Positions 15,402 to 33,500 of a DNA stretch of 64,000 bases are shown here, piece after piece. The stretch lies in the NCBI RefSeq assembly GCF_011064545.1, contig NZ_JAAMFG010000030.1, positions 62,001 through 126,000 of the forward strand, read 5' to 3'. Both the position numbers and the translations under genes were made by a program. The notes under the pieces were generated by a model. That model did not search any database. It was not told the DNA's origin and saw nothing but the letters and a program-made list of their open reading frames with translations. The DNA is from Wenzhouxiangella sp. XN24 (GTDB taxonomy: Bacteria > Pseudomonadota > Gammaproteobacteria > Steroidobacterales > XN24). The stretch's first letter is position 1; the number at the start of each line of letters is the position of its first letter.

Positions 15402-15621
15402 GTGCGGCATTCCGGTAATTCGGTAGGCCCCATTAAGGGATTTGGGGTACGGCTCATTCTTTGGCATGTCCTCTATCACCCCAGCTTTTCGTATTGGTAG
15501 ATGCCGAAACCTGTGAATCTGGTCACCGTAGTTCCGTTACCCGCTCACCCAAAATCTCAGCAATCCGTTTGGCGAACAGCTGGATGTTGTTGCCGTAGTC
15601 GAAGCGCTAAGGAGAGCCAAC
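15402..15621. other. left boundary of the island, no intact gene
   Basis: Composition changes from GC-rich to more balanced here. On the reverse strand 15529-15608 reads FDYGNNIQLFAKRIAEILGE then a stop, which looks like the C-terminal tip of some lost protein. No integrase, tRNA or clear attachment repeat is visible. Confidence 0.35.
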
Positions 15622-16245
15622 GTGAAGCATGCGGACCAGTACCTACCTGAATTACTAACGATAGAGCAAGCCGCCATCAAGGGGCTCCGTATCGATCGCG
15701 TTCACGGGACCGAGTTTCGTGTCAAACCGCGCCTATACCAAGTTCGTGATAACAACCTGAAAAGCCGCGGCCCGTGGTTCATTGAACTATTCCCCAAGCA
15801 GGTAACGAACAAAGACGGTGTGACCCACGAAGCACTCGTGATCTCGCCTTTCCTCGCGCCTTCGAATGCTAGCAATCGCACGGCGCAGCTCACCCGGCAA
15901 TCAATCATGGTCCAACCAGCGACGGCGGGAGCCTACGCTGGACGTCCCTATGCCCACATAACTTTCAGAGAACCCGGTTCCTGGGGTGGAAAAAGAACTG
16001 CAGGCAAAGGCGAGAAGGAGAATCTCCCTGCCTGGTTCTTATCGTTATACAAGCGAAAGATCCGGCTTAGGAAGACGGTGCAGGGCAAGGTCCAATCTGA
16101 TGATGAAATCGGACAACGGTTATCGAAATTCCATGACATTAAGCAAGTAGTGGTTTTCGACGAATGGAACGATCACGATTTCATCCGGTTTTTCATGGCC
16201 ATGAGAGTTTTTTCGGCTGAACGGGGGTTCGCTTTCCGCCACTAG
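15622..16245 (+). CDS. hypothetical island protein, 207 residues
   Basis: The first rightward gene of the island. GTG 15622 follows AAGGAGAG. The 207-residue product is basic and looks soluble (RVHGTEFRVKPRLYQVRDNN, then KYRLRK-like basic segments and VVVFDEWNDHDFIRFF near the end). I recognise no family and no catalytic motif. It lies 1.75 kb upstream of the DUF6884-dpdB-dpdA genes on the same strand, so a role in the modification system is possible but unproven. Confidence 0.55.
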   Translation: MKHADQYLPELLTIEQAAIKGLRIDRVHGTEFRVKPRLYQVRDNNLKSRGPWFIELFPKQVTNKDGVTHEALVISPFLAPSNASNRTAQLTRQSIMVQPATAGAYAGRPYAHITFREPGSWGGKRTAGKGEKENLPAWFLSLYKRKIRLRKTVQGKVQSDDEIGQRLSKFHDIKQVVVFDEWNDHDFIRFFMAMRVFSAERGFAFRH

Positions 16246-16312
16246 ACGTCCGATCCGCCCTGTCCTGCACCCCGAGACGTAACGGCATGTCATGAACTGC
16301 TAAGAAAATGAA

Positions 16313-16861
16313 ATGAAACTCGGAACCATCAGTATCGCGGAGCATGGACAGAAGGGCTTGAGCCTGGCGCCCGTCGTGGGACCACAGGAGCGCGCGACTG
16401 CGCACCTCTACCGCATCCAGGCACTCAGCGGATGGGATCTCTTGGTGGCCTACACGGCTTTCCGAAGTAGCACCGATGTCCGCTGCCTCGAGTACTCCAA
16501 ATCAACGCCAGAAGTACTGCATCGACTTACGCACGGATTGAGAATGTCTGTATTGGGATCTATTAATCCGGTCGTTCAGTGGGCTGAACTGAGCCAGGCT
16601 CGACTGGACAAAACTGTTACGCCCCCTTGGTCAACCCTAAGAAAGGCCTCTGAACAAGAACTAAACGCCGCTGCTGGTATCTCTGTGCGCACTGTGCTCG
16701 ACCAGATTGGCGGCACACTCGGCACGCGGACTGATCAAATTGACGACGACAGCCGGCGACGGTCCTATATGTGCACACTGTTTCCGAAACGAGATCGCTA
16801 CGTGCCGGTTGCTGCCTACGTATTGACCAGGGTTTTACCACTTGCGAACGGGTGGAGTTAG
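16313..16861 (+). CDS. hypothetical island protein, 182 residues
   Basis: A 182-residue frame starting at ATG 16313 with a weak purine-rich site upstream. The product (LYRIQALSGWDLLVAYTAFR, then LMSVLGSIN-like helices and SYMCTLFPKRDRYVPVAAYV) has no domain I recognise. It ends 5 nt before the next start, so the two genes are co-transcribed. Composition matches the rest of the island. Confidence 0.5.
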   Translation: MKLGTISIAEHGQKGLSLAPVVGPQERATAHLYRIQALSGWDLLVAYTAFRSSTDVRCLEYSKSTPEVLHRLTHGLRMSVLGSINPVVQWAELSQARLDKTVTPPWSTLRKASEQELNAAAGISVRTVLDQIGGTLGTRTDQIDDDSRRRSYMCTLFPKRDRYVPVAAYVLTRVLPLANGWS

Positions 16862-16866
16862 AGTCA

Positions 16867-17136
16867 ATGGCCAAACTCGATACCCTGAAGAATGCGAAAC
16901 ACGCAACGATAAAAAATTGGATCGTTCAAGCACTTCGGACCACAGAGAGTGGGCGGTCGAATCAAGACACCCTGGTCAAAAAGATCTGTTCTATGCGGAG
17001 TGTAAGCACCCTGCGCGGGACTCCAAGGACGGACTTTGCAGCAAAGGTCAACAAAGCTATAGGCGCGATGCTCAGGGAAAAGCCTCCGCGTATAGAACGA
17101 TGCGGGGCAGGTCTTCGATCTATTAAACTGTCCTGA
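16867..17136 (+). CDS. small basic hypothetical protein, 89 residues
   Basis: An 89-residue, strongly basic protein (KNAKHATIKNWIVQALRTTE, then LREKPPRIERCGAG) with the feel of a small winged-helix or nucleic-acid-binding domain, though I cannot name a family. ATG 16867 is preceded by GGTGGAG. It follows the previous gene directly. About 230 nt separate it from the DUF6884-like gene. Confidence 0.5.
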   Translation: MAKLDTLKNAKHATIKNWIVQALRTTESGRSNQDTLVKKICSMRSVSTLRGTPRTDFAAKVNKAIGAMLREKPPRIERCGAGLRSIKLS

Positions 17137-17369
17137 CGTCCACGCAATTCGCATGCAAAACCCGGGGCAGGCCATCTTCATGGCTCCTCGCTCCCCCGGC
17201 AAGGGGCATCTTCTCTAGAATCAATTGGTCCGCCAATCGGCAGGCAGGTCACCTCCATTTAATGCGAGTCATTGTCTGGCCCATTCTTGGTGATTAATGC
17301 AACTTATGGTGGTAGAGTAGCGACCCGAATATAGCTAGCCTTGAAGAAAACCCAGCGGGAGCAATTGGG

Positions 17370-18314
17370 ATGGGCGGGACGTACACCGCGGCTTACCTCT
17401 TTACCAACTGTACCGCCCGAAAGAGCAGACCCGCCACCTCGGCACTTTCTCTTCGCACTCTTCCCCGGCAGACACTCCGAGGTCTCGCCCGCGACTGGGT
17501 CCGCAGACTTGATAAAGCTCCGGATCGGCTTCCAGCTACTCAACTTTATCAAGGCCGAGCGATGCGAGAAGCCCAGGCGGCCGCAGAGCAATCATCGGCG
17601 CAATTGATGATTGTCTCTGCCGGTGTCGGACTTGTCGGCGCTAAAACCTTAATCCCTCCCTACGAGGCCACAATCACTCGTGGCCATGCTCAGAACCCCC
17701 AAAACCGAACGAAGGAGACTGCTACCTCTGCAGATTGGTGGTCCGAACTGACAAAAGCATTAGGTCGACCTTCGCCAGTTGCAGAGTTGATTCTTGGGAC
17801 CAAACCAAACTCATTGGCCATTTTCGCTATTTCTCGGCCTTATTTAGAGATGCTCGCAGGTGAAATGTCGAACCTGGGTCCAGAGCAGGTGGGACGTATT
17901 AGAATCATCTCCCACGGCCCTCAATCATGGCTGCCTATTCATCTTCGTGGTCAGACGATCGTCTACTCGGCGAGTTTCGATGGCCCGCGTAGCCCAAACC
18001 CTGGAACGAAGTCGGATTTTGTTCAAAGAGCGGCGCGCCATTTCGTAACCGAGATACTGCCCAACTGTCCTGGCGGTAGTGCCTCAGATCAGCAACGCAT
18101 GGTTAACCACACATTGGACGAACTGCCAATACCGCAGGTACACACGCGCAGACGGCTTACGGACGATGCAATCATAGAAATCATCAAGCGGGACCTTACG
18201 CTTGTCGGGGGACAGAGTTCTCGGATGCTTCGGCATCTCCGGGACAATCTCTATGTCAGTTGCGAACAGGGACGATTCCGGGATCTCTTCAAGAAAGCGG
18301 CGGCTCTAGATTAA
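17370..18314 (+). CDS. DUF6884/YaaA-like protein of the dpd island
   Basis: A 314-residue protein. Its N-terminal half has the DUF6884-type pattern: a cysteine motif (TNCTARKSRP), LYQGRAMREA, then VSAGVGLVGAKTLIPPYEAT. Related domains occur in YaaA-like proteins and in enzymes of 7-deazaguanine metabolism. The C-terminal half (LAIFAISRPYLEMLAGEMSN, RRLTDDAIIEIIKRDLTLVG) is not familiar. It lies 22 nt upstream of dpdB1 with dpdA following, so a role in tailoring preQ0 on DNA, comparable to DpdC of known islands, is a reasonable inference, not a demonstrated fact. Confidence 0.6.
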   Translation: MGGTYTAAYLFTNCTARKSRPATSALSLRTLPRQTLRGLARDWVRRLDKAPDRLPATQLYQGRAMREAQAAAEQSSAQLMIVSAGVGLVGAKTLIPPYEATITRGHAQNPQNRTKETATSADWWSELTKALGRPSPVAELILGTKPNSLAIFAISRPYLEMLAGEMSNLGPEQVGRIRIISHGPQSWLPIHLRGQTIVYSASFDGPRSPNPGTKSDFVQRAARHFVTEILPNCPGGSASDQQRMVNHTLDELPIPQVHTRRRLTDDAIIEIIKRDLTLVGGQSSRMLRHLRDNLYVSCEQGRFRDLFKKAAALD

Positions 18315-18336
18315 GCCCAAGAGTGGAGTCTTGAAC

Positions 18337-19464
18337 ATGGCGACAAAGAAGCCTTTGGCGATTCGGGCAGTGCGAGCGTATCAAGGCGAGGGCCGAGAGC
18401 TCTTCGCTTTCTTCATGCCTGGCAACCTAATTACGAAGATAGCTGACATTAGCCGAGTGGGGAGGGACGAGTCCGAATCTCTCCAAGGCTTCCAGAGGAA
18501 GGCTATTAAGAATCACATTCGCCAGATCACGGCTTATCTCGACCAAGGAGGCGTCCTTTTCCCGAATGCGATCCTCCTAGCTTTTGGTCCTGAAGTTAAG
18601 TTTAGCCGCGCCAGGGGCCGTGACCCAAAGGGCGTTCACAATGTCGGGGAAGTTGGCACCTTGACCATTCCATGGCCAGGCAACCAAGGGCATATCGCTT
18701 GGATCGTCGACGGACAGCAGCGCTCACTGGCGCTTAGTGAGAGCACGAATGGAGATGTCCCCGTGCCGGTTATCGGATTCGTAGGTAACCTCAAGGTACA
18801 GCGCGAGCAGTTCATCTTGGTGAACAAAGCCAAACCACTCCCTACCCGGCTCATTAATGAGTTACTTCCCGAGGTAGACATTCACCTACCGAGGGACTTG
18901 GCCGCGCGAAAGATACCTAGTGAACTTTGCCGATTGCTCCACATCCACCCCGCCTCCCCCTTCAAAGGGTTGGTTCGATTCGAATCTGAGCCGAAATCAA
19001 AGACGGCGATAGTGAGTGATAGTGCTCTGATCGAGACCGTCCGCGCGAGCATCAGCAATCCGTTGGGCGCTCTCTCGCAGTACAAGGCCAGGGGAGACCA
19101 GCCCGCTGACGTGGAAGGGATGTTTTCTGCGCTAGTGCTTTACTGGACAGCTGTTGAGTCTGTATTCGCTGACGCCTGGGGTAAATCACCGACAAGAAGT
19201 CGTTTGATGCATGGAGCCGGCATTAAGGCCATGGGGACGCTCATGGATCACATCATGCCTCGGACCTATGGGGCACGAGATCCTGCATCAGTCATTAGTG
19301 AATCGCTCTCCCGGATTGCCCCTGCGTGTTGTTGGACTTCGGGAACCTGGGAAGACCTTGGCCTTCGCTGGAACCAAGTTCAAAACACGCGCGGCCACGT
19401 TAAGGAACTCGCGGGAGAACTCATACGCTTGGACTATGAGGCTACCCGAAGCGAGCGCGCGTGA
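18337..19464 (+). CDS. dpdB: DpdB-like DGQHR-family protein, paralogue 1
   Basis: A 375-residue protein with the hallmark DGQQR (125-129) of the DndB/DpdB DGQHR group, whose fold is related to ParB/sulfiredoxin nucleases. Other family blocks are GFQRKAIKNHI (51-61), EQFILVNKAKPLPTRL and SRLMHGAGIKAMG. In known dpd islands DpdB acts with DpdA to insert preQ0 into DNA. I use ATG 18337 with GGAG upstream rather than TTG 18331. Its stop overlaps the dpdA start by 4 nt (GTGA), so expression is coupled. Confidence 0.85.
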   Translation: MATKKPLAIRAVRAYQGEGRELFAFFMPGNLITKIADISRVGRDESESLQGFQRKAIKNHIRQITAYLDQGGVLFPNAILLAFGPEVKFSRARGRDPKGVHNVGEVGTLTIPWPGNQGHIAWIVDGQQRSLALSESTNGDVPVPVIGFVGNLKVQREQFILVNKAKPLPTRLINELLPEVDIHLPRDLAARKIPSELCRLLHIHPASPFKGLVRFESEPKSKTAIVSDSALIETVRASISNPLGALSQYKARGDQPADVEGMFSALVLYWTAVESVFADAWGKSPTRSRLMHGAGIKAMGTLMDHIMPRTYGARDPASVISESLSRIAPACCWTSGTWEDLGLRWNQVQNTRGHVKELAGELIRLDYEATRSERA

Positions 19465-20747
19465 AATTCATCTACGCCGATAGCCTTGATGTAGTCGATC
19501 CAGGCTACGATTTTCTTAAGGACACCCATACGCCAGGGCGTCAGCCCTATTGGGACGACCAGTATCCCCACGAAATCCTGAGCAGCCCCCCGTATGACGG
19601 CCTATTGGTGTCTCGTGCAATCGTAGGGGACAAAATTCCAGGCAAATATACACTCGATCAGCGAATGCGATTCCGACGCGAAGGCGCAAGACGATTTCTA
19701 CGGTTAGAAGATCAGAAGTTCCGCGAAATGCTGCTTTTTGGAGACTGCGGCGCCTTTTCTTATCACAAGGAGGAGCGGCCACCGTACACCGTCGATGACA
19801 CGCTGGCTTTCTATCACGACGGGGGCTTCACCCATGGCTTCTCCGTGGACCATGTAATTTTCGAGTTCGATGGCCGTCATCGCGATATGGAAGGAGGTTC
19901 GCATACGGCTCGGACCAGATTCGATATGACCTTGGCGCTAGCCGACGAGTTTCTACGCGCAAGCAAACACATGCCTTCTGAATTCACCCCAATAGGAGTA
20001 ATACAGGGCTGGTCACCGGGAAGCATGGCAGCCGCAGCAAAGGCATTAAAAAAAATGGGCTATACGTACATGGCAGTCGGTGGAATCGTGCCGTTGAAAC
20101 CGGTGCAGATCCATTGGGCGCTAGATGCAATTAGAAGTGCTGTACCAAAGCAAAGTGCCGCCATGCACCTGCTCGGATTTGCGAAGGCTGACCATATTGA
20201 TGAGTTCGTCCGCTACGGAATTACAAGCTTTGACTCAACATCTCCACTTCTCCGTGCATTCAAGGATTCACGAAAGAACTACTACGCGCCCACCGAATCG
20301 GGGAATCTAGAGTACTTTTCTGCTATCCGAATACCACAGGCACTGGAGAACGCTAAGCTAAAGAGGCAGGTCCAAGAGGGTCGTCTTAGGCAAGAAGACC
20401 TACAGAATCTGGAGTTGAATGCCCTGGAGGCCGTGCGTGGTTACGCAGTGCATCGAAACGGACTCACCCACACGCTGCATTCGGTACTCGAATACAACAG
20501 CAAATTGCTTGAGTCAGATTGCACGGATCGGTCCACCAAAGATCGTAAACTGCAGAAACTAAAAATTGAGTATGAAAACACGCTGCAGAAACGCCCATGG
20601 GAGTCATGCGGGTGCGAGATTTGCAGGCATGCCGGGATCGAGGTTGTCATCTTCCGGGCGAGTAACAGAAACAAGCGTCGCGGTATACATAATCTTCATG
20701 TGTTCTATAACCATGTTCGAACGCTGCATTCGGCTGGGACCCCTTGA
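19461..20747 (+). CDS. dpdA: DpdA, DNA-directed guanine transglycosylase homologue
   Basis: A 428-residue TGT-superfamily enzyme that would exchange guanine in DNA for a 7-deazaguanine base. D95 in FGDCGAFSY fits the general acid/base aspartate, and D258 in YGITSFDSTSPLL corresponds to the TGT nucleophile region. VGGIVPLK is the base-binding glycine loop. The C-terminal zinc site is C383, C385, C388 (CGCEICRHAG) and H410. It is longer and less tRNA-like than bacterial Tgt and sits between two dpdB genes, the context of DpdA. Start GTG 19461 overlaps dpdB1; its stop abuts dpdB2. Confidence 0.9.
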   Translation: MKFIYADSLDVVDPGYDFLKDTHTPGRQPYWDDQYPHEILSSPPYDGLLVSRAIVGDKIPGKYTLDQRMRFRREGARRFLRLEDQKFREMLLFGDCGAFSYHKEERPPYTVDDTLAFYHDGGFTHGFSVDHVIFEFDGRHRDMEGGSHTARTRFDMTLALADEFLRASKHMPSEFTPIGVIQGWSPGSMAAAAKALKKMGYTYMAVGGIVPLKPVQIHWALDAIRSAVPKQSAAMHLLGFAKADHIDEFVRYGITSFDSTSPLLRAFKDSRKNYYAPTESGNLEYFSAIRIPQALENAKLKRQVQEGRLRQEDLQNLELNALEAVRGYAVHRNGLTHTLHSVLEYNSKLLESDCTDRSTKDRKLQKLKIEYENTLQKRPWESCGCEICRHAGIEVVIFRASNRNKRRGIHNLHVFYNHVRTLHSAGTP

Positions 20748-21818
20748 ATGAAGTCTTTTACATATCAATGCCTTATCCCGCACCAGGCCACAGGTCGCGA
20801 TATCTTCACATTTTGCGCATCGGTAGACGAGATTTTGCAATTCGCGACGGTGGAGAGAATAGGCCGGACTGCGAGTGGCCAATTAAAGGGTTTTCAAAGG
20901 CCTCACGTAGCAAAACACATCGCGGAGATCCGAGACTATCTAACTGAACCCGACGCCATCTTGCCCAACGCAGTCGTTATCGCCTTTCCTGGAAACGCGG
21001 CACTTTCAGCCTTGGGCAATCGTACTGGCAAACTGACCATTGACTGCAACTCAAACACATACGCTTACGTGGTAGATGGACAGCAACGACTTGCTGCGCT
21101 CAACTCTCTAAAAGGAAAGAGATTCGAGGTTCTCGTTGCCGGGTTCATGTGCGAGGACCTGGAAGAACTAAAGCGTCAGTTTATCCTCATAAACAATGCG
21201 CGCCCTCTTTCAAAGTCCCTAATTTACGAACTCCTACCCACTTCTGGGCAGATGCCCTCGCGCCTTTCGGTAAGGACAAAAGCCGCCCAAATCGTGGAAC
21301 GCCTCAACTTCGATGAGTCATCAAGTCTGTTCCACGAAATTCGGATGCACACGAATCCCGCCGGCGTAATTCGCGATACAGCAATACAACGTGTAGCAAT
21401 GTCGTCATTGAACGACGGCGCGTTGCGTCATCTCGCCGCGAACGACAATTCCCTAGACAAACCCTTTCAACTTCTCAGCAATTTTTATGGCGCTGTCAAG
21501 GAAGCCTTCAAAGACGATTGGCGTGAAAAGACCCCGAGAACATCACGACTGGTACACGGGGTCGGAGTAGTAAGCCTCGGTTATGTTGCGGAATTTCTAC
21601 ACTCGAAGAATCAAGCCTTCGAACAGAGCGATTTTTCCACCGGGTTGTACCCCCTGGTCGGAAGAACTCGATGGTCTTCAGGGTCATGGGAGTTTGGAAT
21701 CGGGGACACGAGGCCCTGGGACTCGCTGCAAAATGTTGCTCGTGACTGGATCCAACTCGCAGACCACCTAATTGGCATTTTGGTCTCGACGACCGCCAAG
21801 AAGGCCAGTCCGAAATAA
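20748..21818 (+). CDS. dpdB: DpdB-like DGQHR-family protein, paralogue 2
   Basis: A 356-residue DGQHR protein with DGQQR at 110-114, GFQRPHVAKHI at 49-59, RQFILINNARPLSKSL and SRLVHGVGVVSLG. It shares the family frame with paralogues 1 and 3 but diverges most, especially near the N-terminus. ATG 20748 directly follows the dpdA stop (TGAATG). It ends the rightward operon and is followed by a strong hairpin. A heteromeric DpdB1-DpdB2 partner for DpdA is a reasonable guess. Confidence 0.84.
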   Translation: MKSFTYQCLIPHQATGRDIFTFCASVDEILQFATVERIGRTASGQLKGFQRPHVAKHIAEIRDYLTEPDAILPNAVVIAFPGNAALSALGNRTGKLTIDCNSNTYAYVVDGQQRLAALNSLKGKRFEVLVAGFMCEDLEELKRQFILINNARPLSKSLIYELLPTSGQMPSRLSVRTKAAQIVERLNFDESSSLFHEIRMHTNPAGVIRDTAIQRVAMSSLNDGALRHLAANDNSLDKPFQLLSNFYGAVKEAFKDDWREKTPRTSRLVHGVGVVSLGYVAEFLHSKNQAFEQSDFSTGLYPLVGRTRWSSGSWEFGIGDTRPWDSLQNVARDWIQLADHLIGILVSTTAKKASPK

Positions 21819-21820
21819 GT

Positions 21821-21848
21821 CCTTGATCCACCTTGAGATGGATCAAGG
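21821..21848. terminator. hairpin between convergent dpdB2 and dpdB3
   Basis: CCTTGATCCA and TGGATCAAGG form a perfect 10-bp stem around 8 nt, 3 nt past the dpdB2 stop. It can terminate the rightward operon. There is no strong T-run, so it may also act in both directions with the leftward operon ending at 21947. Confidence 0.6.
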
Positions 21849-21946
21849 TAAACCGAGGGCATGTTAAGCATGTGGCATTCCGGCCAATGGCAATCATTTC
21901 TTCCAAGGCAAAAGTACTGGTCCTATTTGGAACACCCTTTGCTTTA

Positions 21947-23065
21947 CTAACGCGCCAACTTGTCGTATTCGGAGACAAGGTAAGCCGCCAACCGCCGCTT
22001 GTCCTGACTCGTGTTCTGTATCTCGTTCCATGCACAATTTAGTCTGGGCCATTGCCCACTTGTCCATGCGCACCGACGTTGCACGATGAGAAGTCGGCCT
22101 TTTACTGACTCTACGGAACGCTCGCTTGTGAGGTTGACATCTCGCATAACCCGATCCATCAGGCACCCCATGGCATAGATACCCGCCCCGTGCACCAGAC
22201 GGCTATTACGGGGACTTCCCAACCATGCTTCGGGCCAAACACTAGATACACCTTGAAAAAAAGTGCTGACAACATTTGCAGCCCCCTCAATATCTGTATC
22301 TTCATAGGAGTTGCCTGAACAGGTGGCCAACACGCCGCCGTGCTTTATGCTTCTCTCAATGAGACCCACGATTGCCGCCTGGCTGATGTTGCACCCGTCG
22401 CCGATGGATCCAAGCCCTCTAATCCGTCCACAAAAGGGGGAATTTTTATCGAACCTAAGAACCTCAAGGATTGCGGCGGCAACCCGACGTAGACGCAGGT
22501 TATCGGGAAGGTGAGCGTCTATGTGCGGCAATAACTCGTTCAACAGATCCTTAGGCAGCGGCTTAGTTCTGTTTACCAGCACAAACTGTTCTCTCTGAAC
22601 GCTGGGCGCATCCGAACAAAACCCAACTACCACGACAGGAAACGGTCGAGATGGTTCTAATTCAGATAGGGCGGCGACCCGTTGTTGTCCATCGACGATG
22701 AACCCTGGCTTTGTCTCGCGCGGACCCGACAGTGGAATCGACAGGGTGCCGAAGGTTCCCCATTCACTTCGTAATTGGTTCGAGAGTGGAGTAAAGGCAA
22801 CGGTCTTATTGAAAGCAATTACGATAGCGTTTGGCAGGAGTGCGCCCTCCTGCTGCAAGTACGCATGGATGGCGGCTATATGTCGCGAGACTCGCTCCCT
22901 TTGATATCCTGCAAGCTCACCGTCTTCGACCCTCTGCGCAAAATGGACAGATGCGAACTGGTGAATCATTCGCCCGTTGACCCCGAAGACGACCAACGGC
23001 ACATCCTTCCGTTGCTCGATCCGCAAAGCGTTCACTCTCACGACTCGCGGGGCTTCCTTATCCAT
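21947..23065 (-). CDS. dpdB: DpdB-like DGQHR-family protein, paralogue 3
   Basis: A 372-residue DGQHR protein with DGQQR at 125-129, GYQRERVSRHI at 53-63, REQFVLVNRTKPLPKDL and SRLVHGAGIYAMG. It is closer to paralogue 1 (both end W-TSG-W then WNxxQNT) than to paralogue 2. Unlike those two it is the last gene of the leftward operon, starting 4 nt after the stop of the unknown gene at 23070. It is thus linked to the ATPase/nuclease genes rather than to dpdA, which suggests a separate role, for example in sensing modification. Confidence 0.82.
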   Translation of the reverse strand: MDKEAPRVVRVNALRIEQRKDVPLVVFGVNGRMIHQFASVHFAQRVEDGELAGYQRERVSRHIAAIHAYLQQEGALLPNAIVIAFNKTVAFTPLSNQLRSEWGTFGTLSIPLSGPRETKPGFIVDGQQRVAALSELEPSRPFPVVVVGFCSDAPSVQREQFVLVNRTKPLPKDLLNELLPHIDAHLPDNLRLRRVAAAILEVLRFDKNSPFCGRIRGLGSIGDGCNISQAAIVGLIERSIKHGGVLATCSGNSYEDTDIEGAANVVSTFFQGVSSVWPEAWLGSPRNSRLVHGAGIYAMGCLMDRVMRDVNLTSERSVESVKGRLLIVQRRCAWTSGQWPRLNCAWNEIQNTSQDKRRLAAYLVSEYDKLAR

Positions 23066-23069
23066 TGAA

Positions 23070-24344
23070 TTACTGGGTCAATCCTAATTCTGTTTCTGCA
23101 ATGTGGATATTCTGAGGATCACGGCTGTATCGACCACCAGAAAGGGATACACCGGGAGCTTTAGCTGCGTAGTCGATAATGTCTTTATGAACTTCGCCAA
23201 ACGATACATCGTGCTCAGAGAGCAATGCCGTCAATAAGGTGACATCTCTTAGCGAACTCGGGCCAACTCGACGCCTCAGAAGTTTATAGGCTTTCAAAAG
23301 GGACTCTGGGAAGGGCATTGGACCAATCCGCTCGCGAAAATGGTTCCAGCTAGGATTGCTACGCCATTGACCGCTCGCCACAGAAGATTCCATCTCCTTC
23401 TCGCCGAATCTTGCGTCCAAATCAGAGAGCAACTGCACAGCCTCGGGCATGACTCGGTATTCAAAGGTATTCTTTCGTATACCGTCTTTACTTAAGTAAC
23501 CCAAATCAACAAGCCACTCTAACCTTGGCGATACTCTGTGTTCCAAAACGCCAGGGGCACGGCGTGACGTGCTTGCCTTAGCGGCAGTTCTTTCAATCAG
23601 CTTTCTATGCTTAATGGCCTCTGCCAGTATTGCGCGCGGAATCCGGCTGCCGATTTCTTCCAGCGCACGCCTGACTATAACGGGATACTGATCGGCAACT
23701 TGATCACGAGAGACAGTCTGCCCAAGCTCAACAATGCACCGCAGGAGTTCGCGCGTCACTGGACCGTCGGTCTCAAGGAGCTGCCTAAGGAGTGCGACTC
23801 GCTCTATCCCTATAATGAAAGGATTTCGTTCTGTTAGTCCTTCGATGACCGATAACTGGCGCAGCGACTGAACTAGGTATCCGGCGCTAGATAGCGCATT
23901 CGTCGGCTTCGTAAGCAAACGAAGTTGCCGCGCAAGACCGAGGATCTCAGTCGCGACCTCGGGCGTCGGAACACCTACTGTAGAAGGGACCGCCGGATCA
24001 GACATCCAGATATCCGTCTCATGGACGGGAAGGGAGCCTATCTCTTTTCCATGTCTGTCTAACGCTACCCAGCGGTCACACGACTTCTTCAGCCCGTATC
24101 CACGATAGCGCCCTTCAACTCGCGGGCGCTCGCCTATAAGTCCCTTTTGAACCAAATAACGAAACGTACCGTCATTGCTGCCATCTTCAACGTCAAGTGA
24201 CCTCGAACTGTCCAAGTCGTCTTTCAACCTGGAGATCAGCGTCTGTTCCCGCTGATTTGCAAGCGTACACCTATCAAGAACCAGATTTACGGAACCCAGT
24301 CTCGAGCGGAAGATGGTTAGGTATGTTAGGAACGGCTCATGCAT
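23070..24344 (-). CDS. unknown protein of the putative restriction operon
   Basis: A 424-residue soluble protein of no family I can name. It has an N-terminal region that reads like a winged-helix (TFRYLVQKGLIGERPRVEG) and a second one near residues 275-300 (RLEWLVDLGYLSKDG), separated by a long helical region. Such tandem winged-helix architecture fits a DNA-binding adaptor. It begins 12 nt after the HerA-like stop and ends 4 nt before dpdB3. It could correspond to DpdG of known islands, but I cannot show that from sequence. Confidence 0.6.
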   Translation of the reverse strand: MHEPFLTYLTIFRSRLGSVNLVLDRCTLANQREQTLISRLKDDLDSSRSLDVEDGSNDGTFRYLVQKGLIGERPRVEGRYRGYGLKKSCDRWVALDRHGKEIGSLPVHETDIWMSDPAVPSTVGVPTPEVATEILGLARQLRLLTKPTNALSSAGYLVQSLRQLSVIEGLTERNPFIIGIERVALLRQLLETDGPVTRELLRCIVELGQTVSRDQVADQYPVIVRRALEEIGSRIPRAILAEAIKHRKLIERTAAKASTSRRAPGVLEHRVSPRLEWLVDLGYLSKDGIRKNTFEYRVMPEAVQLLSDLDARFGEKEMESSVASGQWRSNPSWNHFRERIGPMPFPESLLKAYKLLRRRVGPSSLRDVTLLTALLSEHDVSFGEVHKDIIDYAAKAPGVSLSGGRYSRDPQNIHIAETELGLTQ

Positions 24345-24356
24345 TATCGAATGAGG

Positions 24357-25760
24357 CTAGAGCTCGATTCCACCATGCACCGTCGCACGGGGCCTAACGT
24401 TCACAACAAGTGCTCTGCGGACGGTAGTATCCATGTCGGCAGCCGAAACAAGACAATACCCTGGAGGCAGCTGACGAAGTAGATCAGACAGGCTCAGCTT
24501 ATTGGCACCGGAGCTGATTGAGTCAGGTAGGCTGGATTTCAGATTGTCCTTTACCGCTCGGATATCCGGCTCCGTTACCAGTTGATGGGCCACAAAGGTC
24601 TCGACTTGGCTCAGGACTCGCTGGTCTAAGGCGGATGGCTGCTGAGTGGCTAATACGGCAGACAGGCCCATGTTGCGCCCCTCCTTAACCAAGCGAATAA
24701 ATAGATCTCTTGCAGAATTACTTGGCCCAGGCGCGAGAAACGACTGCGCTTCGTCTAACATCACGACTGTCTTAGGGATGCCTGATTCCACAACACTGGT
24801 TAATGCGGCGCGAGTAGTGTCGTCCAACGTAGAGTCAAGAACCAGCCTTTTCTCAGCAAACGACGTGTCGTTGCGAACCGATATCAACATACGAGTGAGG
24901 ACAGCAACTACCGCAGCTCGGTATCCCTCAGGCAGGCGTCCCAACATCACTATTGTTACGCGTCCTGGTGCCAGCAGTTCACGTATCCTGGTGCCCTCTG
25001 CCGAAAAGAGCCCTGTCGAATGCAAAGCTCCGAGGCGTTGCGAGAGTGCTCGGATCGTTTCAGGGTGGTAGATCCCAGCTAATTCCTCCGACCGGGCGGC
25101 CCGTGAAAGGTGGAGCAGATCAAAATCGGTCCTTGGATCAGTCACTTCCCCCTCGCTTGTGAATCCTCTATCTCGCGTGAAAACCAAAGCGTCGGCAAGC
25201 GCTTGCCCAATCGGTTGAGTCATAATGTTTACGTCAAGCAGGAGTTCCCATTCTTCAAGTCCCATCGCTGAAACAGGTAACTGGAGGGTTTTGAACCAAT
25301 CGGGATCTGCCTGGCGGCGGTTCTGGCTACCCGGAACCCACGCCTCTACATTGAATCCCAGCCCGAGCAGATCAGCTGACTTAGCCATCTGGTAATGACG
25401 CGAAACTTCCTTGTTGCCGGTAGGCTGTACTGAGTACCGCGTTGTCCAATAAACATCCAGCGGATCAAAAAGGAGAACGGCGCGGGGCGCATCCTGACGT
25501 CCGAGTACAGCGCCCTCCATTACTCCTAAGCCTTCCGCTATCACGCCCAATGTGAAGGACTTTCCACTACCACGCTTCCCAACCACTGCAACCACTTGCT
25601 CCTTCGCAGTGGCGAGCCAGACCTTCGGCTGACTGCCAGTAGTGGCTTCCGCGAGAGTTCCAAGCCATAGCGCTCCGCCTTTTGAATCACCTGAACCGAG
25701 GTGAATAGCCTTTTGAGTTGGATCAAGCTGCGGCCGAATTTTATATTGTCTTGTAACCAT
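24357..25760 (-). CDS. HerA/FtsK-like ATPase
   Basis: A 467-residue HerA-type P-loop ATPase. Walker A is GKRGSGKS at 61-68, followed by FTLGVIAEGL; Walker B is TVVMLDEAQ near 330-340; a sensor-like ATQQPSALD follows. HerA ATPases form hexameric rings that pump DNA and are frequent engines of anti-phage systems, usually with a nuclease. Here the candidate nuclease is the PLD protein two genes upstream. ATG 25760 lies 4 nt after the AAA gene stop. Confidence 0.83.
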   Translation of the reverse strand: MVTRQYKIRPQLDPTQKAIHLGSGDSKGGALWLGTLAEATTGSQPKVWLATAKEQVVAVVGKRGSGKSFTLGVIAEGLGVMEGAVLGRQDAPRAVLLFDPLDVYWTTRYSVQPTGNKEVSRHYQMAKSADLLGLGFNVEAWVPGSQNRRQADPDWFKTLQLPVSAMGLEEWELLLDVNIMTQPIGQALADALVFTRDRGFTSEGEVTDPRTDFDLLHLSRAARSEELAGIYHPETIRALSQRLGALHSTGLFSAEGTRIRELLAPGRVTIVMLGRLPEGYRAAVVAVLTRMLISVRNDTSFAEKRLVLDSTLDDTTRAALTSVVESGIPKTVVMLDEAQSFLAPGPSNSARDLFIRLVKEGRNMGLSAVLATQQPSALDQRVLSQVETFVAHQLVTEPDIRAVKDNLKSSLPDSISSGANKLSLSDLLRQLPPGYCLVSAADMDTTVRRALVVNVRPRATVHGGIEL

Positions 25761-25764
25761 GAAC

Positions 25765-26916
25765 TTAGGCGTTCACAACTGAGGACACGTAGCCATGGGA
25801 CAGAATTCGACGTTGCTCGTCTATTGCACGGTTCAACAAGTCATCAAGGGTTTGTTGTATATCTCTGGGAAGCGTCGACCCACCAGTGCGGCAGGCATAC
25901 TGAACAGCAAGCTCTAAGCCTTCATTGGTGAAGGGGAAAGTGCCCTCATCGACTTCTTCGCCTTGTGTTTCGGAGCCAAACTGATTAATCAAGTCAACTC
26001 TCTTATCGCTATCTACCCATTCAGACAGCAGTGATCTAATGAACTCCCGCGTCTCATCTTCATTCATCCTATGAAGCATGATGTAGTGAGATTCACCAAA
26101 TCTCGAAACGACCTGCTGGTCTTGAAGCGAATAAGCCATATTCTCTAGGTCTATCCATGACCCGGAAGCTACGAAGCCGATCTCCTTTGTCTGCTGATCG
26201 GCTATCAATTTGAGCGCATTGGTCCAGTGGTGAATCGAGTCTTGGTTGACCACCGCATCAAGCTTCGTAGCCTCATCAAGCATAAAGACAAGCATCTTGT
26301 CTTCTGCCTCCGAGCAAAGAAACCCGAGTAACTGAAGTACCCTAACAAATTCATTCGACTGACTAAGCGCGGGACCCAGGCCAGCGCTTCTGGCATCCGC
26401 GGCACTAAGCGTCACCCCCCGAAGCCAGTCCCACGCCGATCTACTGCTATCCCCGCGTCCAACCAAAATCAACCCGAAGGCTGCCGCGATATCTCCCGAC
26501 TGCGTACGTTCCTTGATTATTTCCTCGAAGTCATCAGGATGCTTCGTCATGAACTTTTTCATCCAATCCCGCGCCAACTCAAACCCGAGCGCATCCAACA
26601 AAGCCGCGTGCGCGACCTGAAAGGTGGACTTCGACGTGATGTCCGGAAGTTCCCTGAAGACAACCCGGGCCGGAAACTCATCGGTGGTCTCGATGACATA
26701 TTCGAGATGCCTCATGGTGTGTGTCTTGCCGACGCCCCAATCACCATAAAGGACCATCTTGGGTGGGTTACCCGTGCGAAAAGACCTTCTTAACAGGCCC
26801 ATCAACTGTCTGTTGAGTTCATGACGAGCAAAGAAAAGCCTTGCGTCAGCGTCAGTCTCAATCGCAAAGTCATTGTGTTCATCCTTGAGGCCGAACCATG
26901 CTTGCATCGTTTCCAT
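25765..26916 (-). CDS. AAA ATPase (ORC/CDC6-like) of the restriction operon
   Basis: A 383-residue AAA+ ATPase with Walker A GDWGVGKT at 58-65 and Walker B FMLDEATKLD near 208-217, followed by an IGFVASGSWID sensor block. The C-terminal 100 residues are helical (FTNEGLELAVQYACRTGGST). I chose ATG 26916, which has GGAG 8 nt upstream and lies 13 nt after the PLD stop. An upstream in-frame start at 27003 would overlap the PLD gene. It is likely a regulatory or loading ATPase for the HerA ring. Confidence 0.78.
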   Translation of the reverse strand: METMQAWFGLKDEHNDFAIETDADARLFFARHELNRQLMGLLRRSFRTGNPPKMVLYGDWGVGKTHTMRHLEYVIETTDEFPARVVFRELPDITSKSTFQVAHAALLDALGFELARDWMKKFMTKHPDDFEEIIKERTQSGDIAAAFGLILVGRGDSSRSAWDWLRGVTLSAADARSAGLGPALSQSNEFVRVLQLLGFLCSEAEDKMLVFMLDEATKLDAVVNQDSIHHWTNALKLIADQQTKEIGFVASGSWIDLENMAYSLQDQQVVSRFGESHYIMLHRMNEDETREFIRSLLSEWVDSDKRVDLINQFGSETQGEEVDEGTFPFTNEGLELAVQYACRTGGSTLPRDIQQTLDDLLNRAIDEQRRILSHGYVSSVVNA

Positions 26917-26929
26917 AACTCTTTCTCCA

Positions 26930-28177
26930 CTAGCCAGCGACGTCGAATTTTGCTTTGTAGGCAAGAGTTCTTCCTGGAGTTCGGTAGATCCTCTCGGCTT
27001 CACGGTCTAACCGAGAAATGACCTGCTTCCCCTGCATAAAGGCGTTCACTAATACACCTATCTCTTCGGCCTCCAAAGACCGCTCAGTAAAATTTGCAGA
27101 ACCAAGGAGCGCGAACCTCCCAGTATTTGTCAACGCGGTGTAGAGCTTCGCGTGCATATTCTCAACGTACACAATATTGGCTCTACCAGTATCAGCAAGC
27201 ATCGAAACAGCCCTCTTGTGCCAGTCCAAGTTTGGCGGCCGAGTGACAACATATACCGTAGCCTTGTCTTCGTTGATTCGCTGCAGCAAGGCGCTGAACG
27301 ATAGTGTTCTGGATGACGTGACTTCGGAAATCCACGGGCTCACCAGAAAGATCCGCTTCCACCCTACGGCGTCTGCCAACTGTTTGAGAAACGTGTCTAT
27401 AACACGAACTGTGGCGACCTTGAGCCAAGCGGGATGTGCAGACTCGGGCCTTTCTAGCGCTGTGCTACCCGCCGACTCCGTTTTGATCGCCTTTGAGAGA
27501 ATCCCAAGCTCTGCTGATAACTCCTGCAGCCGCGATTGGAGAATCGCACTGTTGGCTGTGCCGACCGACGGCGAATCACCACGCACAGGCATTCCTGGCT
27601 CTTGGTCATCGGGTGCGGCACCCGAAAGGCGAAGCACCACTGCTTCAGCAATCCTTTGTACATCTGGCTCTGGAATCCTGATCTCCGACCGAAATCTATG
27701 CTGAATATAGCTGTGCGACTCCTTCACATTCAGCGGTCTGCTAGCATTGCCATCGCGAATATAAAACTCTCGTTTCTCTCCATCCTGAAAATAAACTGGA
27801 TCTCGACTAGGGCTGCAATCAATTCTTGCCACCAATTGCCCGTGTGACGGCACAAACTCAATCGAAGTCGCTGCTGACTGGGTCACCCCCAGGTGCTTTC
27901 CTATACAGTTCCTAATTGTCAACTCGTAATAGTCTGCAGTCTTCCTTGAAAGGGTGTTGATGTCGGCGCCAATACCCACTACATCACCATTGTCGTCTAC
28001 GCCGATAAGCAGGGTTCCGCCACTTGAATTAAAGAAAGCAGCCAGTGTCTTCGGAACGACCTTGGCCAGATCTCGATTGACCTGTTGAGTAGCAAAGTCA
28101 AATCGCATAGACGACTTGAACTCAAGTTCCTGGCCCTCGCCGCGCAAAATAAATTCGTGTACCTCGTCCGTGCTCAT
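26930..28177 (-). CDS. Schlafen-AlbA plus phospholipase-D-like nuclease (DpdK-like)
   Basis: About 415 residues with two domains. The N-terminus is a Schlafen/AlbA_2 domain (GQELEFKSSMRFD, then GGTLLIGVDDNGDVVGI and REFYIRDGNASRPL). The C-terminus is a single PLD-type nuclease repeat with NMHAKLYTAL and LLGSANFTERSLEAEE, so the active site probably forms by dimerisation. The aspartate of the classical HxKx4D motif is replaced. Dpd islands encode a PLD protein, DpdK, which this may represent with an added AlbA head. It is the first gene of the operon running to dpdB3. ATG 28177 was taken for its upstream GGGATGG. Confidence 0.8.
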   Translation of the reverse strand: MSTDEVHEFILRGEGQELEFKSSMRFDFATQQVNRDLAKVVPKTLAAFFNSSGGTLLIGVDDNGDVVGIGADINTLSRKTADYYELTIRNCIGKHLGVTQSAATSIEFVPSHGQLVARIDCSPSRDPVYFQDGEKREFYIRDGNASRPLNVKESHSYIQHRFRSEIRIPEPDVQRIAEAVVLRLSGAAPDDQEPGMPVRGDSPSVGTANSAILQSRLQELSAELGILSKAIKTESAGSTALERPESAHPAWLKVATVRVIDTFLKQLADAVGWKRIFLVSPWISEVTSSRTLSFSALLQRINEDKATVYVVTRPPNLDWHKRAVSMLADTGRANIVYVENMHAKLYTALTNTGRFALLGSANFTERSLEAEEIGVLVNAFMQGKQVISRLDREAERIYRTPGRTLAYKAKFDVAG

Positions 28178-28537
28178 CGTCGGAACCATCCCATTGCGTC
28201 GGGAGCTAGAGTCAGCCCATGCTATCGGTTGAAAGAACAAGCTGCCGATAAAAATGCAGCGAACTGAAACAAGATAGGTGACCAATAGGCGTCATCTGAG
28301 ATAGGAGTCCGGTGACTTGGCTCAGCCGAGTGGAACCAAGACTCTTAATCAAGGCTTCATGTCGTGAATAAATACGCATTCCACATCGGTGGGCGTCGTG
28401 CGCGATCCGGCCGGTAGATTCTGCGGCAGTGGTCGACCTTATATCGCTGGGAAAATGCATGAAAGGCCCAGGTAGCCATCCGGAGAAAAATGCAACCATA
28501 TGGCGCGGTTTCCGTGTACTGCGGCCCAAGAAGAGCA
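28178..28537. other. gene-free stretch upstream of the PLD operon
   Basis: About 360 nt between queE and the AlbA-PLD gene. A leftward frame of 123 codons crosses it but has no family resemblance or good start. It presumably holds the promoter of the five-gene operon. No clear hairpin was seen. Confidence 0.4.
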
Positions 28538-29188
28538 TTACGGCATACCTATTAACTTGTGGATCTGGAGTGACAGACGCCACTTAGGATTTGACATGCA
28601 GTATGCGGCAGCCCTTTTTGTATTTAAAACGGCATCGGGGCCATCTAAGGGCTGCAGAAACAAATGGTCGAACCCCAATTTTTCAAATTGGGCTGGTTGC
28701 GCCTCGAGTTGCTCTTGCGGGAATACGAGCTTCAACTCATTCCCCGTCTGCTGCAGAAGCTCTGGCCCCGGCTTAGGGCTCACACATATCCAGTCGAGGC
28801 CAGGAGGAGCGAGAATCGTCCCATTGGTTTCAACACCAACCTCAAACCCCGCTTCATGTAACGCTTCTATTGCCGCCGCATCTAACTGAAGCAAGGGTTC
28901 ACCCCCGGTACAAACCACATACGGCTTGCCCTGATCCAAATCAGGCCAGTGTCGCGCTACAGCCTTAGCTAACTCTTCTGCAGTAGCGAACTTGCCGCCA
29001 CCAGGCCCATCAGTGCCCACGAAGTCCGTGTCACACCATCTAGAGCACCCCCCCGGTCCTTTGTGACGATCTTGCTCTCGCCCACTCCAAAGGTTGCAAC
29101 CGGCAAAGCGCAGGAACACGGCTGGACGTCCCGCCTGGGCGCCCTCCCCCTGCAGCGTGTAATAGATCTCTTTTACGGAGTAAGCCAT
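28538..29188 (-). CDS. queE: QueE, 7-carboxy-7-deazaguanine synthase
   Basis: A 216-residue radical-SAM enzyme that rearranges 6-carboxytetrahydropterin to 7-carboxy-7-deazaguanine, the second of the three pathway steps encoded here. The family N-terminus YYTLQGEGAQAGRPAVFLRF is followed by an unusual cluster motif: C-NLWSG, 16 residues, C, 3 residues, C (WCDTDFVG). It is longer than the C-x14-C-x2-C form of QueE enzymes with an insertion. VVCTGGEPLLQLD and ETNGT are the SAM-binding blocks. ATG overlaps the queD stop by one base (TAATG). Confidence 0.92.
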   Translation of the reverse strand: MAYSVKEIYYTLQGEGAQAGRPAVFLRFAGCNLWSGREQDRHKGPGGCSRWCDTDFVGTDGPGGGKFATAEELAKAVARHWPDLDQGKPYVVCTGGEPLLQLDAAAIEALHEAGFEVGVETNGTILAPPGLDWICVSPKPGPELLQQTGNELKLVFPQEQLEAQPAQFEKLGFDHLFLQPLDGPDAVLNTKRAAAYCMSNPKWRLSLQIHKLIGMP

Positions 29189-30294
29189 TAGCGAAGGTCC
29201 GCCGGCAGCGCCGGTCCGTTCTCACCCCATTGCAGAAAACCACCGCATCCTGGGCTCTCGTAAAGATCGATCCGGTCCAATTGCGGCAAAGTCTCGGCCA
29301 TTTGACTCCGAATCCAACGAAGTACAGATGGGGTGTTGCCACTTTCCATTCCGGCAATTTCATCAAGGCGAAAGTGATCGAGCTGATCGTAGGCTGGTTT
29401 GAATAAGCTCTTGACGTCGCCGTAGTCCACGGTCCAACCCAAAAGCTCGTCCAGTGGCGCTGTCAGATGCAGTCGCACGATATAACTGTGGCCATGCAGC
29501 GATCTCCTCGGATCCCCCTCTGGAGCATGACTTAGCCGTGTCGCCGCTTCGAAGCGTCGCTCTTTCCAAATTCGATAGTGCTGTCCGTCGTAGTGGCAAC
29601 CCGCTGTCACGGTCTCGTAGACAGTGACCCATGAAAGCTCCGGCATATCCGACTTTAGCTTGTCCCAGATCCAACGAGCGATGTGCTCGCTGGTCGGATT
29701 TTCGAGGCCTGGAATATCATTGAGGCATGCGAGGTGGAGCTGAGCGTGCAACGGCGCCCACTTCGCCTCAAGCTGATCGAAATCGATCCCCATATCTCGC
29801 ACGCCAAGTGACTGGTTGGCGTGCAGGATTACCTCGAACCCATGACCATGCATCCGTCCACACTGATGCCCTTCCGGGACGTTCGGGAGTTGATGTGCAG
29901 CCTCAAACCGGAAGCGCCGCCAGATATGAGCCCGATTAAGCTCATCCAGATCGGCACCTTCGTTGGATGTACTCTGGACACCCACCAAATCAATGCCAGG
30001 GACGTCCCGAACGCGCGATCTAACCCAGCGAGCGATATTCTCATCCGTTGGAACATTGATGATCTCGTTCAATAGCCTGTAGTCCAGGTGTCCAACGCAC
30101 TCGGCGAGTTGCCTCTCAAGAAATGACGCCTCATCGCCGGGGAAGTCCACCCAGTTCTCAGGCAACGCCGCCCGAAGCCGAGCCACGAAACTATGGCCAT
30201 GCAAGCGGCGGGAGCGATGACCCTCGGGTAGGACATCCACGTGGCGGGCGGCTTCAAAAGGCGCAGCCGCGAGAATGAACAGCTGCTCGTTCAC
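29188..30294 (-). CDS. queD: QueD-type 6-carboxytetrahydropterin synthase with three tandem domains
   Basis: A 368-residue protein made of three consecutive PTPS/QueD domains (about 1-120, 125-245, 248-368); normal QueD has one domain of about 120 residues. Each carries an HGHS/HGHG zinc motif. Only the middle one keeps the full set: EAAHQLPNVPEGHQCGRMHGH with the catalytic cysteine and both zinc histidine blocks. Domain 1 lacks the cysteine. Domain 3 lacks the first zinc histidine (EAATRLSH) and the cysteine. The middle domain is thus likely the catalyst, the others structural. Start GTG 30294 overlaps queC by 4 nt. Confidence 0.9.
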   Translation of the reverse strand: MNEQLFILAAAPFEAARHVDVLPEGHRSRRLHGHSFVARLRAALPENWVDFPGDEASFLERQLAECVGHLDYRLLNEIINVPTDENIARWVRSRVRDVPGIDLVGVQSTSNEGADLDELNRAHIWRRFRFEAAHQLPNVPEGHQCGRMHGHGFEVILHANQSLGVRDMGIDFDQLEAKWAPLHAQLHLACLNDIPGLENPTSEHIARWIWDKLKSDMPELSWVTVYETVTAGCHYDGQHYRIWKERRFEAATRLSHAPEGDPRRSLHGHSYIVRLHLTAPLDELLGWTVDYGDVKSLFKPAYDQLDHFRLDEIAGMESGNTPSVLRWIRSQMAETLPQLDRIDLYESPGCGGFLQWGENGPALPADLR

Positions 30295-30965
30295 TGGGCG
30301 AATCTCTGAATCAATGGGTCAGGCATCCCAGCTTCTTCGAATCCTCGGGCACGGATGACACAGGCTGGGCAGGTCCCGCAAGGAGGACGCTGCCCGTTAT
30401 AACATGTGTGCGTCAGGGCCATTGCCTCCAGGCCACCTAACTCGGAAACCATTCTTACAGTGTCAGCCTTGGACAGATGCATTAGCGGTGTATGGATGGA
30501 GATCTCGTACTCCATCCCAAGCCCAACGGCCTTCTCGAGAGCCTTGATCGTCTCTTCGCGACAGTCCGGATAACCGCTGTAGTCGGTCTGAGCAACACCC
30601 GTCACTAGGTGATGGATACCCCTTTGGTAAGCAAACGCGGCGGCGTAGGTCAGGAAAATCAGGTTTCTACCAGGCACAAACGTGTTCGGCAGATTGTTTT
30701 CCGGGTTGAGCTCCGAACGGACTGCGATCTCGTCTGCCGTCAGCGCACTGCCACCAAGCGCCCGCAACGTATCGATGGGAAGCACCGTGTTCGGGACGCC
30801 AGAGAACTGCGCCACGTCGCGCGCGGCTTCAAGTTCGGTCCGATGCCTCTGGCCATAGTCGAACGTCAATGTCTGAACGTTCTCACGACCCCAGCGGTCG
30901 ATGGCCCAATAGAGGCAGGTGGTTGAATCCTGCCCGCCGGACAGAACGACTAACGCTCTACTCAT
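30291..30965 (-). CDS. queC: QueC, 7-cyano-7-deazaguanine (preQ0) synthase
   Basis: A 224-residue adenine-nucleotide alpha-hydrolase with the PP-loop LSGGQDSTTCLYWA near the N-terminus, the family block PGRNLIFLTYAAAFA, and a C-terminal zinc cluster (CYNGQRPPCGTCPACVIRAR, four cysteines). It converts carboxydeazaguanine to preQ0 with ATP and ammonia, the product DpdA would use. I chose ATG 30965, right before the PP-loop strand. It is first in queC-queD-queE, each overlapping the next. No folE-like gene is in the window. Confidence 0.93.
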   Translation of the reverse strand: MSRALVVLSGGQDSTTCLYWAIDRWGRENVQTLTFDYGQRHRTELEAARDVAQFSGVPNTVLPIDTLRALGGSALTADEIAVRSELNPENNLPNTFVPGRNLIFLTYAAAFAYQRGIHHLVTGVAQTDYSGYPDCREETIKALEKAVGLGMEYEISIHTPLMHLSKADTVRMVSELGGLEAMALTHTCYNGQRPPCGTCPACVIRARGFEEAGMPDPLIQRFAQ

Positions 30966-31118
30966 TCCAGTTCCCACTACCAAACCCAAGCCGCACTATT
31001 CGTGCTACTAAGAGGTAAAAGCTGAGATTCCCGCAGCATTTCCGCCTCTTCCGAAATCAGTTGCCGATAAAAATCGCCTCTGACATCACCAGACTCTGCT
31101 GAATTAGCCCTCCTTCGA

Positions 31119-33119: not shown

Positions 33120-33500
33120 CCCGCCTCCAAATTGATCATCGCAACGACTTTACTGACCCGGACAATCGCTCCGGGCGTAATTTGAGTTCCTCAGCAAGGG
33201 AATCTTCTTTCACATTATTCGACGATTTATCACTCGACACCCATCATTCGGGCGATGCAAACGTACAGCGCTCCGGCGGAAGAGTCGCGGGCCCCGGTTG
33301 CGACTCCCCCGGGTCAGCAGCGCACGACCTTCGGAATCAGGCCTCGGCTCATACACTTAGCAAACAACGGCTTGGTCTTCTTAGCGGACCGGTGAGTGCT
33401 TAGCCCACCCATAGGCGGGCTTGGGTCCTTCTTGGGCTTTCTAGCCCAATAACGGCCTTGGACTCAATACGTACTGCCTCACTACGCCTATGCCCGAAGC
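33120..33500. other. right boundary of the island, no gene
   Basis: About 380 nt between the ATPase-HEPN gene and the readthrough tail of the HD gene. The only structure I see is a pair of hairpins around 33405-33449. GC content rises again to the right. No integrase, tRNA or clear attachment repeat was recognised. Confidence 0.4.
33432..33449. terminator. hairpin TTGGGCT-TTCT-AGCCCAA
   Basis: A perfect 7-bp stem with a 4-nt loop. A weaker GCCC/GGGC pair precedes it at about 33411-33420. It lies between the leftward HD gene tail and the start of the leftward ATPase-HEPN gene, where it could end transcription entering from the HD side. Confidence 0.4.

What the first reader, a model, noticed from the sequence alone, without database searches (positions are those of the whole stretch)
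18337..23065. Three DpdB-like paralogues, one tied to the restriction operon
Two dpdB-like genes flank dpdA and are translationally coupled to it; a third ends the opposite-strand operon with PLD, AAA and HerA genes. All keep DGQQR, FQR/YQR, a QF-x-LxN block and SRLxHG. I know of dpd islands with a single dpdB. Inference: a mixed DpdB1/DpdB2 insertion complex plus a DpdB3 that guides or inhibits the nuclease complex.
Basis: partly seen in the sequence, partly recalled or inferred. Interest (0 to 1): 0.82.

Follow-up and report, generated by a model that had tools for sequence, protein, structure and literature searches.

The report
Third DpdB in odd restriction operon
A bacterial DNA-marking defence island carries the usual pair of DpdB helper proteins around the marking enzyme, plus a rarer third DpdB tied to an unusual set of DNA-cutting genes, which suggests this protein family may serve restriction as well as marking.

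Summary
All three genes exceed the NCBI DpdB equivalog cut-off; B1 and B2 flank dpdA with coupled junctions, and B3 ends an opposite-strand operon with a PLD nuclease, AAA ATPase, HerA ATPase and an orphan gene. Half of it is ordinary: the order dpdB1-dpdA-dpdB2 occurs in 73 of 80 related DpdA loci, B1 and B2 form two old, well supported clades, and extra dpdB copies are already reported (PMC11888242). The unusual part is B3: none of 78 DpdA-bearing genomes has three over-cut-off DpdBs in one island, B3 belongs to neither the B1 nor the B2 clade, it has lost an arginine kept by 179 of 180 DpdBs, and its operon partners have no relatives beside any other dpd locus examined. The restriction operon is non-canonical: no DpdD-J, an AlbA_2-PLD protein resembling DpdK, and HerA related to a BREX-related capture system. 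In ten other dpd islands a distant third DGQHR protein always lies beside an HNH nuclease gene, like split SspE or GmrSD. I infer that B1/B2 serve insertion and that B3 is an NTP-driven modification sensor for restriction. No function was tested.

The parts
17370..18314 (+). dpdC (DUF6884), presumed dPreQ0-to-dADG hydrolase
   Evidence: PADLOC DpdC 277 bits; Pfam DUF6884
18331..19464 (+). dpdB1, member of the upstream B1 clade
   Evidence: NF041060 430 bits; tree, proteobacterial B1 clade 99/99
19461..20747 (+). dpdA, TGT-family DNA base exchange enzyme
   Evidence: NF041059 539 bits; 51-57% identical to the nearest plasmid-borne DpdAs
20748..21818 (+). dpdB2, member of the downstream B2 clade
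   Evidence: NF041060 349 bits; tree, B2 clade 99/99
21947..23065 (-). dpdB3, last gene of the opposite-strand restriction operon; R42F and D229Q
   Evidence: NF041060 364 bits; conserved residues; model pLDDT 94 with ParB N-terminal fold
23070..24344 (-). gene X, 424 aa, orphan
   Evidence: no family above cut-off in Pfam, PADLOC or NCBIfam; no tblastn match in plasmids; no homologue at other dpd loci; model without alignment unusable, pLDDT 38
24357..25760 (-). HerA/DUF87 ATPase, Walker A GKRGSGKS
   Evidence: Pfam DUF87, PADLOC mad8/HerA; 29% to HerA of a haloarchaeal locus with a TGT and queE/queD
25765..27003 (-). AAA_16 ATPase, weakly like SspG/BrxD; true start probably near 26916
   Evidence: Pfam AAA_16 1.5e-8; PADLOC SspG/BrxD about 1e-3
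26930..28285 (-). Schlafen/AlbA_2 domain fused to a DpdK-like PLD nuclease domain; true start probably 28177-28189
   Evidence: AlbA_2 3e-17; NF041068 DpdK 1e-7, below cut-off; SPWIS, HxK and GSxNxT motifs
28538..29188 (-). queE, preQ0 synthesis
   Evidence: Radical_SAM 9.3e-6; 57-60% to queE of B1-A-B2 islands
29188..30294 (-). queD as a fusion of three PTPS repeats
   Evidence: PTPS, 3 stretches
30291..30989 (-). queC, preQ0 synthesis
   Evidence: QueC 5e-77

Best explanation
This is a dpd island: QueC/D/E help make preQ0, DpdA exchanges it into DNA and DpdC converts it towards dADG. DpdB1 and DpdB2 are two old, non-redundant subunits flanking DpdA in one translationally coupled operon and most likely form a mixed DpdB1-DpdA-DpdB2 insertase; this layout is normal for the clade. 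DpdB3 is a separately derived DpdB that has joined a non-canonical restriction operon (AlbA_2-PLD nuclease, ORC/BrxD-like AAA, HerA ATPase, orphan X). It most likely works as that complex's NTP-binding modification sensor, reading dPreQ0/dADG or its absence and licensing the nuclease, as the DGQQR domain of SspE does. Shown: genes, order, families, phylogeny, predicted fold and conserved motifs. Inferred: the base made, complex formation, what B3 senses, and nuclease licensing.
For: Family scores. B1-A-B2 in 73 of 80 loci; 4-nt B1/A overlap in 64 of 75. Separate B1 and B2 clades, B3 outside both. B3 is last in the nuclease operon, 4 nt after X. All 10 distant third DGQHR proteins found in other dpd islands lie beside an HNH nuclease gene, usually just downstream and overlapping or nearly so (L023). 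B3 is modelled at pLDDT 94; residues 25-169 align to ParB-CTP structures at Z 8.1, 2.5 A over 94 residues. The DGQQR domain of SspE couples modification recognition through GTP hydrolysis to DNA cleavage (PMC13251355); GmrS pairs DGQQR with an HNH partner (PMC4619093). DpdB-family genes occur with no dpdA nearby on plasmids and in (pro)phages.
Against: No biochemistry. The HNH-associated proteins are far from DpdB3 in sequence (36-126 bits on my profile) and have a different partner nuclease, so the analogy is indirect. B3 is sister to B1 at 92/91, which leaves an insertion role open. No second example of this operon was found, so it may be non-functional or a chance assembly. Residue R42, kept even by DpdBs without a nearby DpdA, is lost in B3 and could mean loss of activity.
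Confidence: 0.5

Rival explanations
1. DpdB3 is an alternative insertion subunit: DpdA is swapped between DpdB partners to mark other sites or to raise the modification level when restriction is expressed.
For: B3 keeps 48 of 52 residues conserved in both B1 and B2, including DGQQR; sister of B1 at 92/91.
Against: Not in the dpdA operon; no other island examined has a third over-cut-off DpdB; unique loss of R42.
Confidence: 0.2
2. DpdB3 is a repressor or antagonist that balances restriction against modification, like DndB, which binds the dnd promoter and lowers modification.
For: DndB is a DGQHR-family regulator of its own operon (PMC4507180); B3 lies between the two convergent operons.
Against: DpdB in dpd systems is described as an ATPase for base insertion (PMC12839542); no operator-like site was sought or shown; the conserved NTPase motif suggests more than DNA binding.
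Confidence: 0.17
3. DpdB3 is a relic or passenger, brought in with the operon and no longer needed.
For: Only one example; long branch; loss of R42 and D229.
Against: Intact 372-aa frame, tight operon spacing, nearly all invariant residues kept, including all of DGQQR.
Confidence: 0.13

Closest known systems
dpd island with canonical DpdD-K (Enterobacter cloacae plasmid L027; dpdB1-A-B2 version in G102 and Agrobacterium vitis plasmid L023)
   Same: DpdA, DpdB and DpdC; in G102 and A. vitis the same dpdC-dpdB1-dpdA-dpdB2 order; preQ0 genes nearby
   Different: Restriction operon DpdD-K is replaced by AlbA_2-PLD, AAA, HerA and X; a third full DpdB
HNH-DGQHR cassettes beside dpd operons (L056, L076, L098, L109, L111, L048, L023, L042, L105, L107)
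   Same: An extra DGQHR-family protein next to a nuclease gene in a dpd island
   Different: The DGQHR protein is far below the DpdB cut-off; HNH instead of PLD nuclease; no relative of the window's HerA, AAA or X there
SspE / GmrSD / BrxU type IV-like enzymes
   Same: DGQQR ParB/Srx-fold NTPase domain linked to DNA cleavage
   Different: They carry an HNH nuclease domain or partner; B3 is a single-domain protein in a PLD/HerA operon
BREX-related capture (BRC) systems (PMC12839542; Haloplanus locus L030)
   Same: HerA ATPase plus ORC-like AAA, TGT and preQ0 genes nearby
   Different: BRC has PglZ and DUF6079, and no DpdB or DpdC

Membership tests
DpdB (NF041060) | score over the curated cut-off of 300 bits | tested here: met
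   430, 349 and 364 bits
DpdB (NF041060) | DGQ(Q/H)R motif and ParB/Srx fold | tested here: met
   motif in all three; fold modelled for B3 only
DpdB (NF041060) | needed for preQ0 insertion by DpdA | not testable with these tools
   needs deletion or reconstitution
Upstream B1 / downstream B2 orthologue groups | B3 falls inside one of the two clades | tested here: not met
   B1 clade 100/99 and B2 clade 99/99 exclude B3; holding B3 inside proteobacterial B1 gives p-AU 0.039; a B3+B2 clade is not rejected, p 0.20
Canonical Dpd restriction module DpdD-K | DpdD to DpdJ genes present | tested here: not met
   no hit of DpdD and DpdF-K seeds from L027 or DpdD-I and DpdK seeds from G102 in the window at E 1e-4; DpdJ model gives only weak 47-residue matches in the genome
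DpdK (NF041068) | score over the cut-off of 100 bits | tested here: not met
   31.7 bits for the PLD domain; so DpdK-like only
BRC system | HerA present | tested here: met
   29% over 89% with Haloplanus HerA
BRC system | PglZ and DUF6079 present | tested here: not met
   no such match among the ten island proteins scanned
SspE / GmrSD | HNH nuclease domain or adjacent partner | tested here: not met
   no HNH match in the five proteins of the B3 operon

The most novel reading that the evidence does not exclude
DpdB-type DGQHR NTPases have been recruited more than once as base-modification sensors of restriction in dpd islands, once with a PLD nuclease, AAA and HerA module (B3) and in other islands with HNH nucleases; the window island is a new restriction type that reads dPreQ0/dADG through its third DpdB.
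Probability: 0.35. Interest if true: 0.7.

Novelty: new variant of a known kind. Interest (0 to 1): 0.5.

Why it matters
How dpd restriction tells marked from unmarked DNA is, to my knowledge, open. If extra DpdB-family NTPases act as the sensor, as in SspE, that question becomes testable with a compact operon. The survey also corrects the picture of one dpdB per island: two specialised DpdBs flanking DpdA are the rule in this clade, so single-DpdB reconstitutions may not represent it.

Tried and rejected
Recent duplication of the three genes: rejected by phylogeny. B1-A-B2 as unusual: rejected, it is the clade's rule. Relatives of X, AAA or the full PLD protein elsewhere: X and AAA have no tblastn match in plasmids, the PLD protein matches plasmids only over the AlbA_2 half, X and HerA gave nothing in viral contigs, AAA none in 398 genomes of the phylum, X and PLD none and AAA only one marginal hit in a haloarchaeal plasmid among the fetched loci. 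HerA in 50 dpd genomes: one weak partial match. Structure of X without an alignment: unusable. Foldseek on B3: no match at E 0.001 or better; the second look listed ParB, Srx, and at low Z SspE and BrxU. A genome scan with DpdB3 alone found nothing. Exact placement of B3 (with B1 or B2) is unresolved. Core dpd papers (Thiaville 2016, Yuan 2018, Gedara 2023, the 2024 review) are not held; statements on DpdA/B/C function come from PMC11888242, PMC12839542 and general knowledge.

Full report
What is there. The window holds a lower-GC island (about 46-57% per gene against 63-72% outside) from about 15404 to 33606. On the plus strand lie dpdC, dpdB1, dpdA and dpdB2; on the minus strand an ATPase gene, queC, a triple queD, queE, then AlbA_2-PLD, AAA, HerA, gene X and dpdB3. 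The three DpdBs exceed the NCBIfam DpdB cut-off and are the only DndB-family genes found in the genome. The B1/A junction overlaps by 4 nt, A and B2 abut, and X and B3 are 4 nt apart. About 250 nt or more separate queE from the PLD gene, so the restriction genes may have their own promoter.

The site is a defence hotspot. In a same-genus genome (G408) the left flank matches up to window 15403 at 91% and the right flank from 33607 at 92%, and the space between holds DrmA, DrmB, DrmMII and DrmD of a DISARM system.

B1 and B2 are ordinary. A genome scan with a DpdA alignment gave 206 relatives; the best 80 were kept, so the sample leans towards this DpdA clade. 73 of 80 show B1-A-B2; four lack B1 next to A, two lack B2, one lacks both; one of these has a broken B2 and some may reflect short contigs. 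In 64 of 75 loci B1 overlaps A by 4 nt. NCBI annotation already names both as DpdB on several plasmids, and PMC11888242 reports dpdB as the dpd gene with most extra copies, n=801. In the trees B1 and B2 are separate clades, and an actinobacterial locus also has two DpdBs around its DpdA, one of them in the B1 clade.

B3 is unusual. Counted over whole genomes, 78 DpdA-bearing genomes have at most two over-cut-off DpdBs per island; the two genomes with more carry two islands. B3 is 31-39% identical to other DpdBs, lies outside the B1 and B2 clades, and is sister to B1 at 92/91 on a long branch; joining it to B2 is not rejected (p-AU 0.20), placing it inside proteobacterial B1 is weakly rejected (p-AU 0.039). 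Of 52 residues conserved in both B1 and B2 groups it keeps 48. R42 is kept in 179 of 180 DpdBs and only B3 differs (F, codon TTT); D229 is kept in 175 of 180. DGQQR, QR, H62, N165, R289 and four tryptophans are intact.

Fold. AlphaFold2 with 58 sequences models B3 at pLDDT 94. Its N-terminal part aligns to ParB-CTP structures at Z about 8 (2.5 A over 94 residues), to sulfiredoxin at 5.6, and weakly to BrxU 3.9 and SspE 3.8. The tool warns that Z near 8 alone can be a common arrangement; the agreement with the published ParB/Srx assignment of DGQHR-like domains (PMC4619093) is what supports it.

The restriction operon is not the canonical one. No DpdD-J was detected in the window and DpdJ is not credible elsewhere in the genome. 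The PLD domain has DpdK motifs but scores below the DpdK cut-off and is fused to an AlbA_2 domain. HerA is nearest to a haloarchaeal locus with a TGT, queE and queD that fits the BRC description (PMC12839542). No relative of X, AAA or the PLD protein was found at the other bacterial dpd loci.

A recurrent parallel. Ten other dpd islands carry a third, distant DGQHR protein; in all ten an HNH-nuclease gene lies beside it on the same strand (in L023 an IS element and a small gene intervene), and my HNH profile hit only one further locus, at a contig end. Five of these HNH genes were checked against Pfam and match HNH families, some only weakly; L023's is annotated HNH endonuclease. This looks like a split SspE or GmrSD. 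The pattern was seen after the search, not predicted, so it is a lead rather than a test.

Mechanism. DGQQR domains in SspE hydrolyse GTP on meeting the modification and then license the nuclease (PMC13251355). I infer the same logic for B3 with the PLD/AAA/HerA complex, with B1 and B2 serving DpdA. What B3 reads, and whether it activates or restrains, is unknown.

Noticed in passing
29188-30294: QueD is a fusion of three PTPS repeats; by eye only the middle repeat keeps the AAH and Cys residues expected for activity. Similar fusions occur in G102, L054, L076, L096 and L114.
   Followed up: partly
L023, L042, L048, L056, L076, L098, L105, L107, L109, L111: A distant third DGQHR protein beside an HNH nuclease gene in ten dpd islands.
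   Followed up: partly
L125, L132, L133, L128, L028, L127, L136: DpdB-family genes with no dpdA in the fetched stretch, including a DUF6884-DpdB fusion (L132, similar in L133) and a gene of Myxococcus phage Mx4.
   Followed up: partly
G408:C23:207665-234367 (L129, L130): A same-genus genome holds DISARM genes at the same chromosomal site.
   Followed up: partly
31119-33119: 666-aa AAA/STAND-like ATPase gene, lowest GC of the island (0.464), no PADLOC or NCBIfam match.
   Followed up: no
15622-17136: Three small ORFs upstream of dpdC with no Pfam family above cut-off.
   Followed up: no
L126, L134, L131: Complete dpdC-dpdB1-dpdA-dpdB2 stretches in records filed as viral.
   Followed up: no
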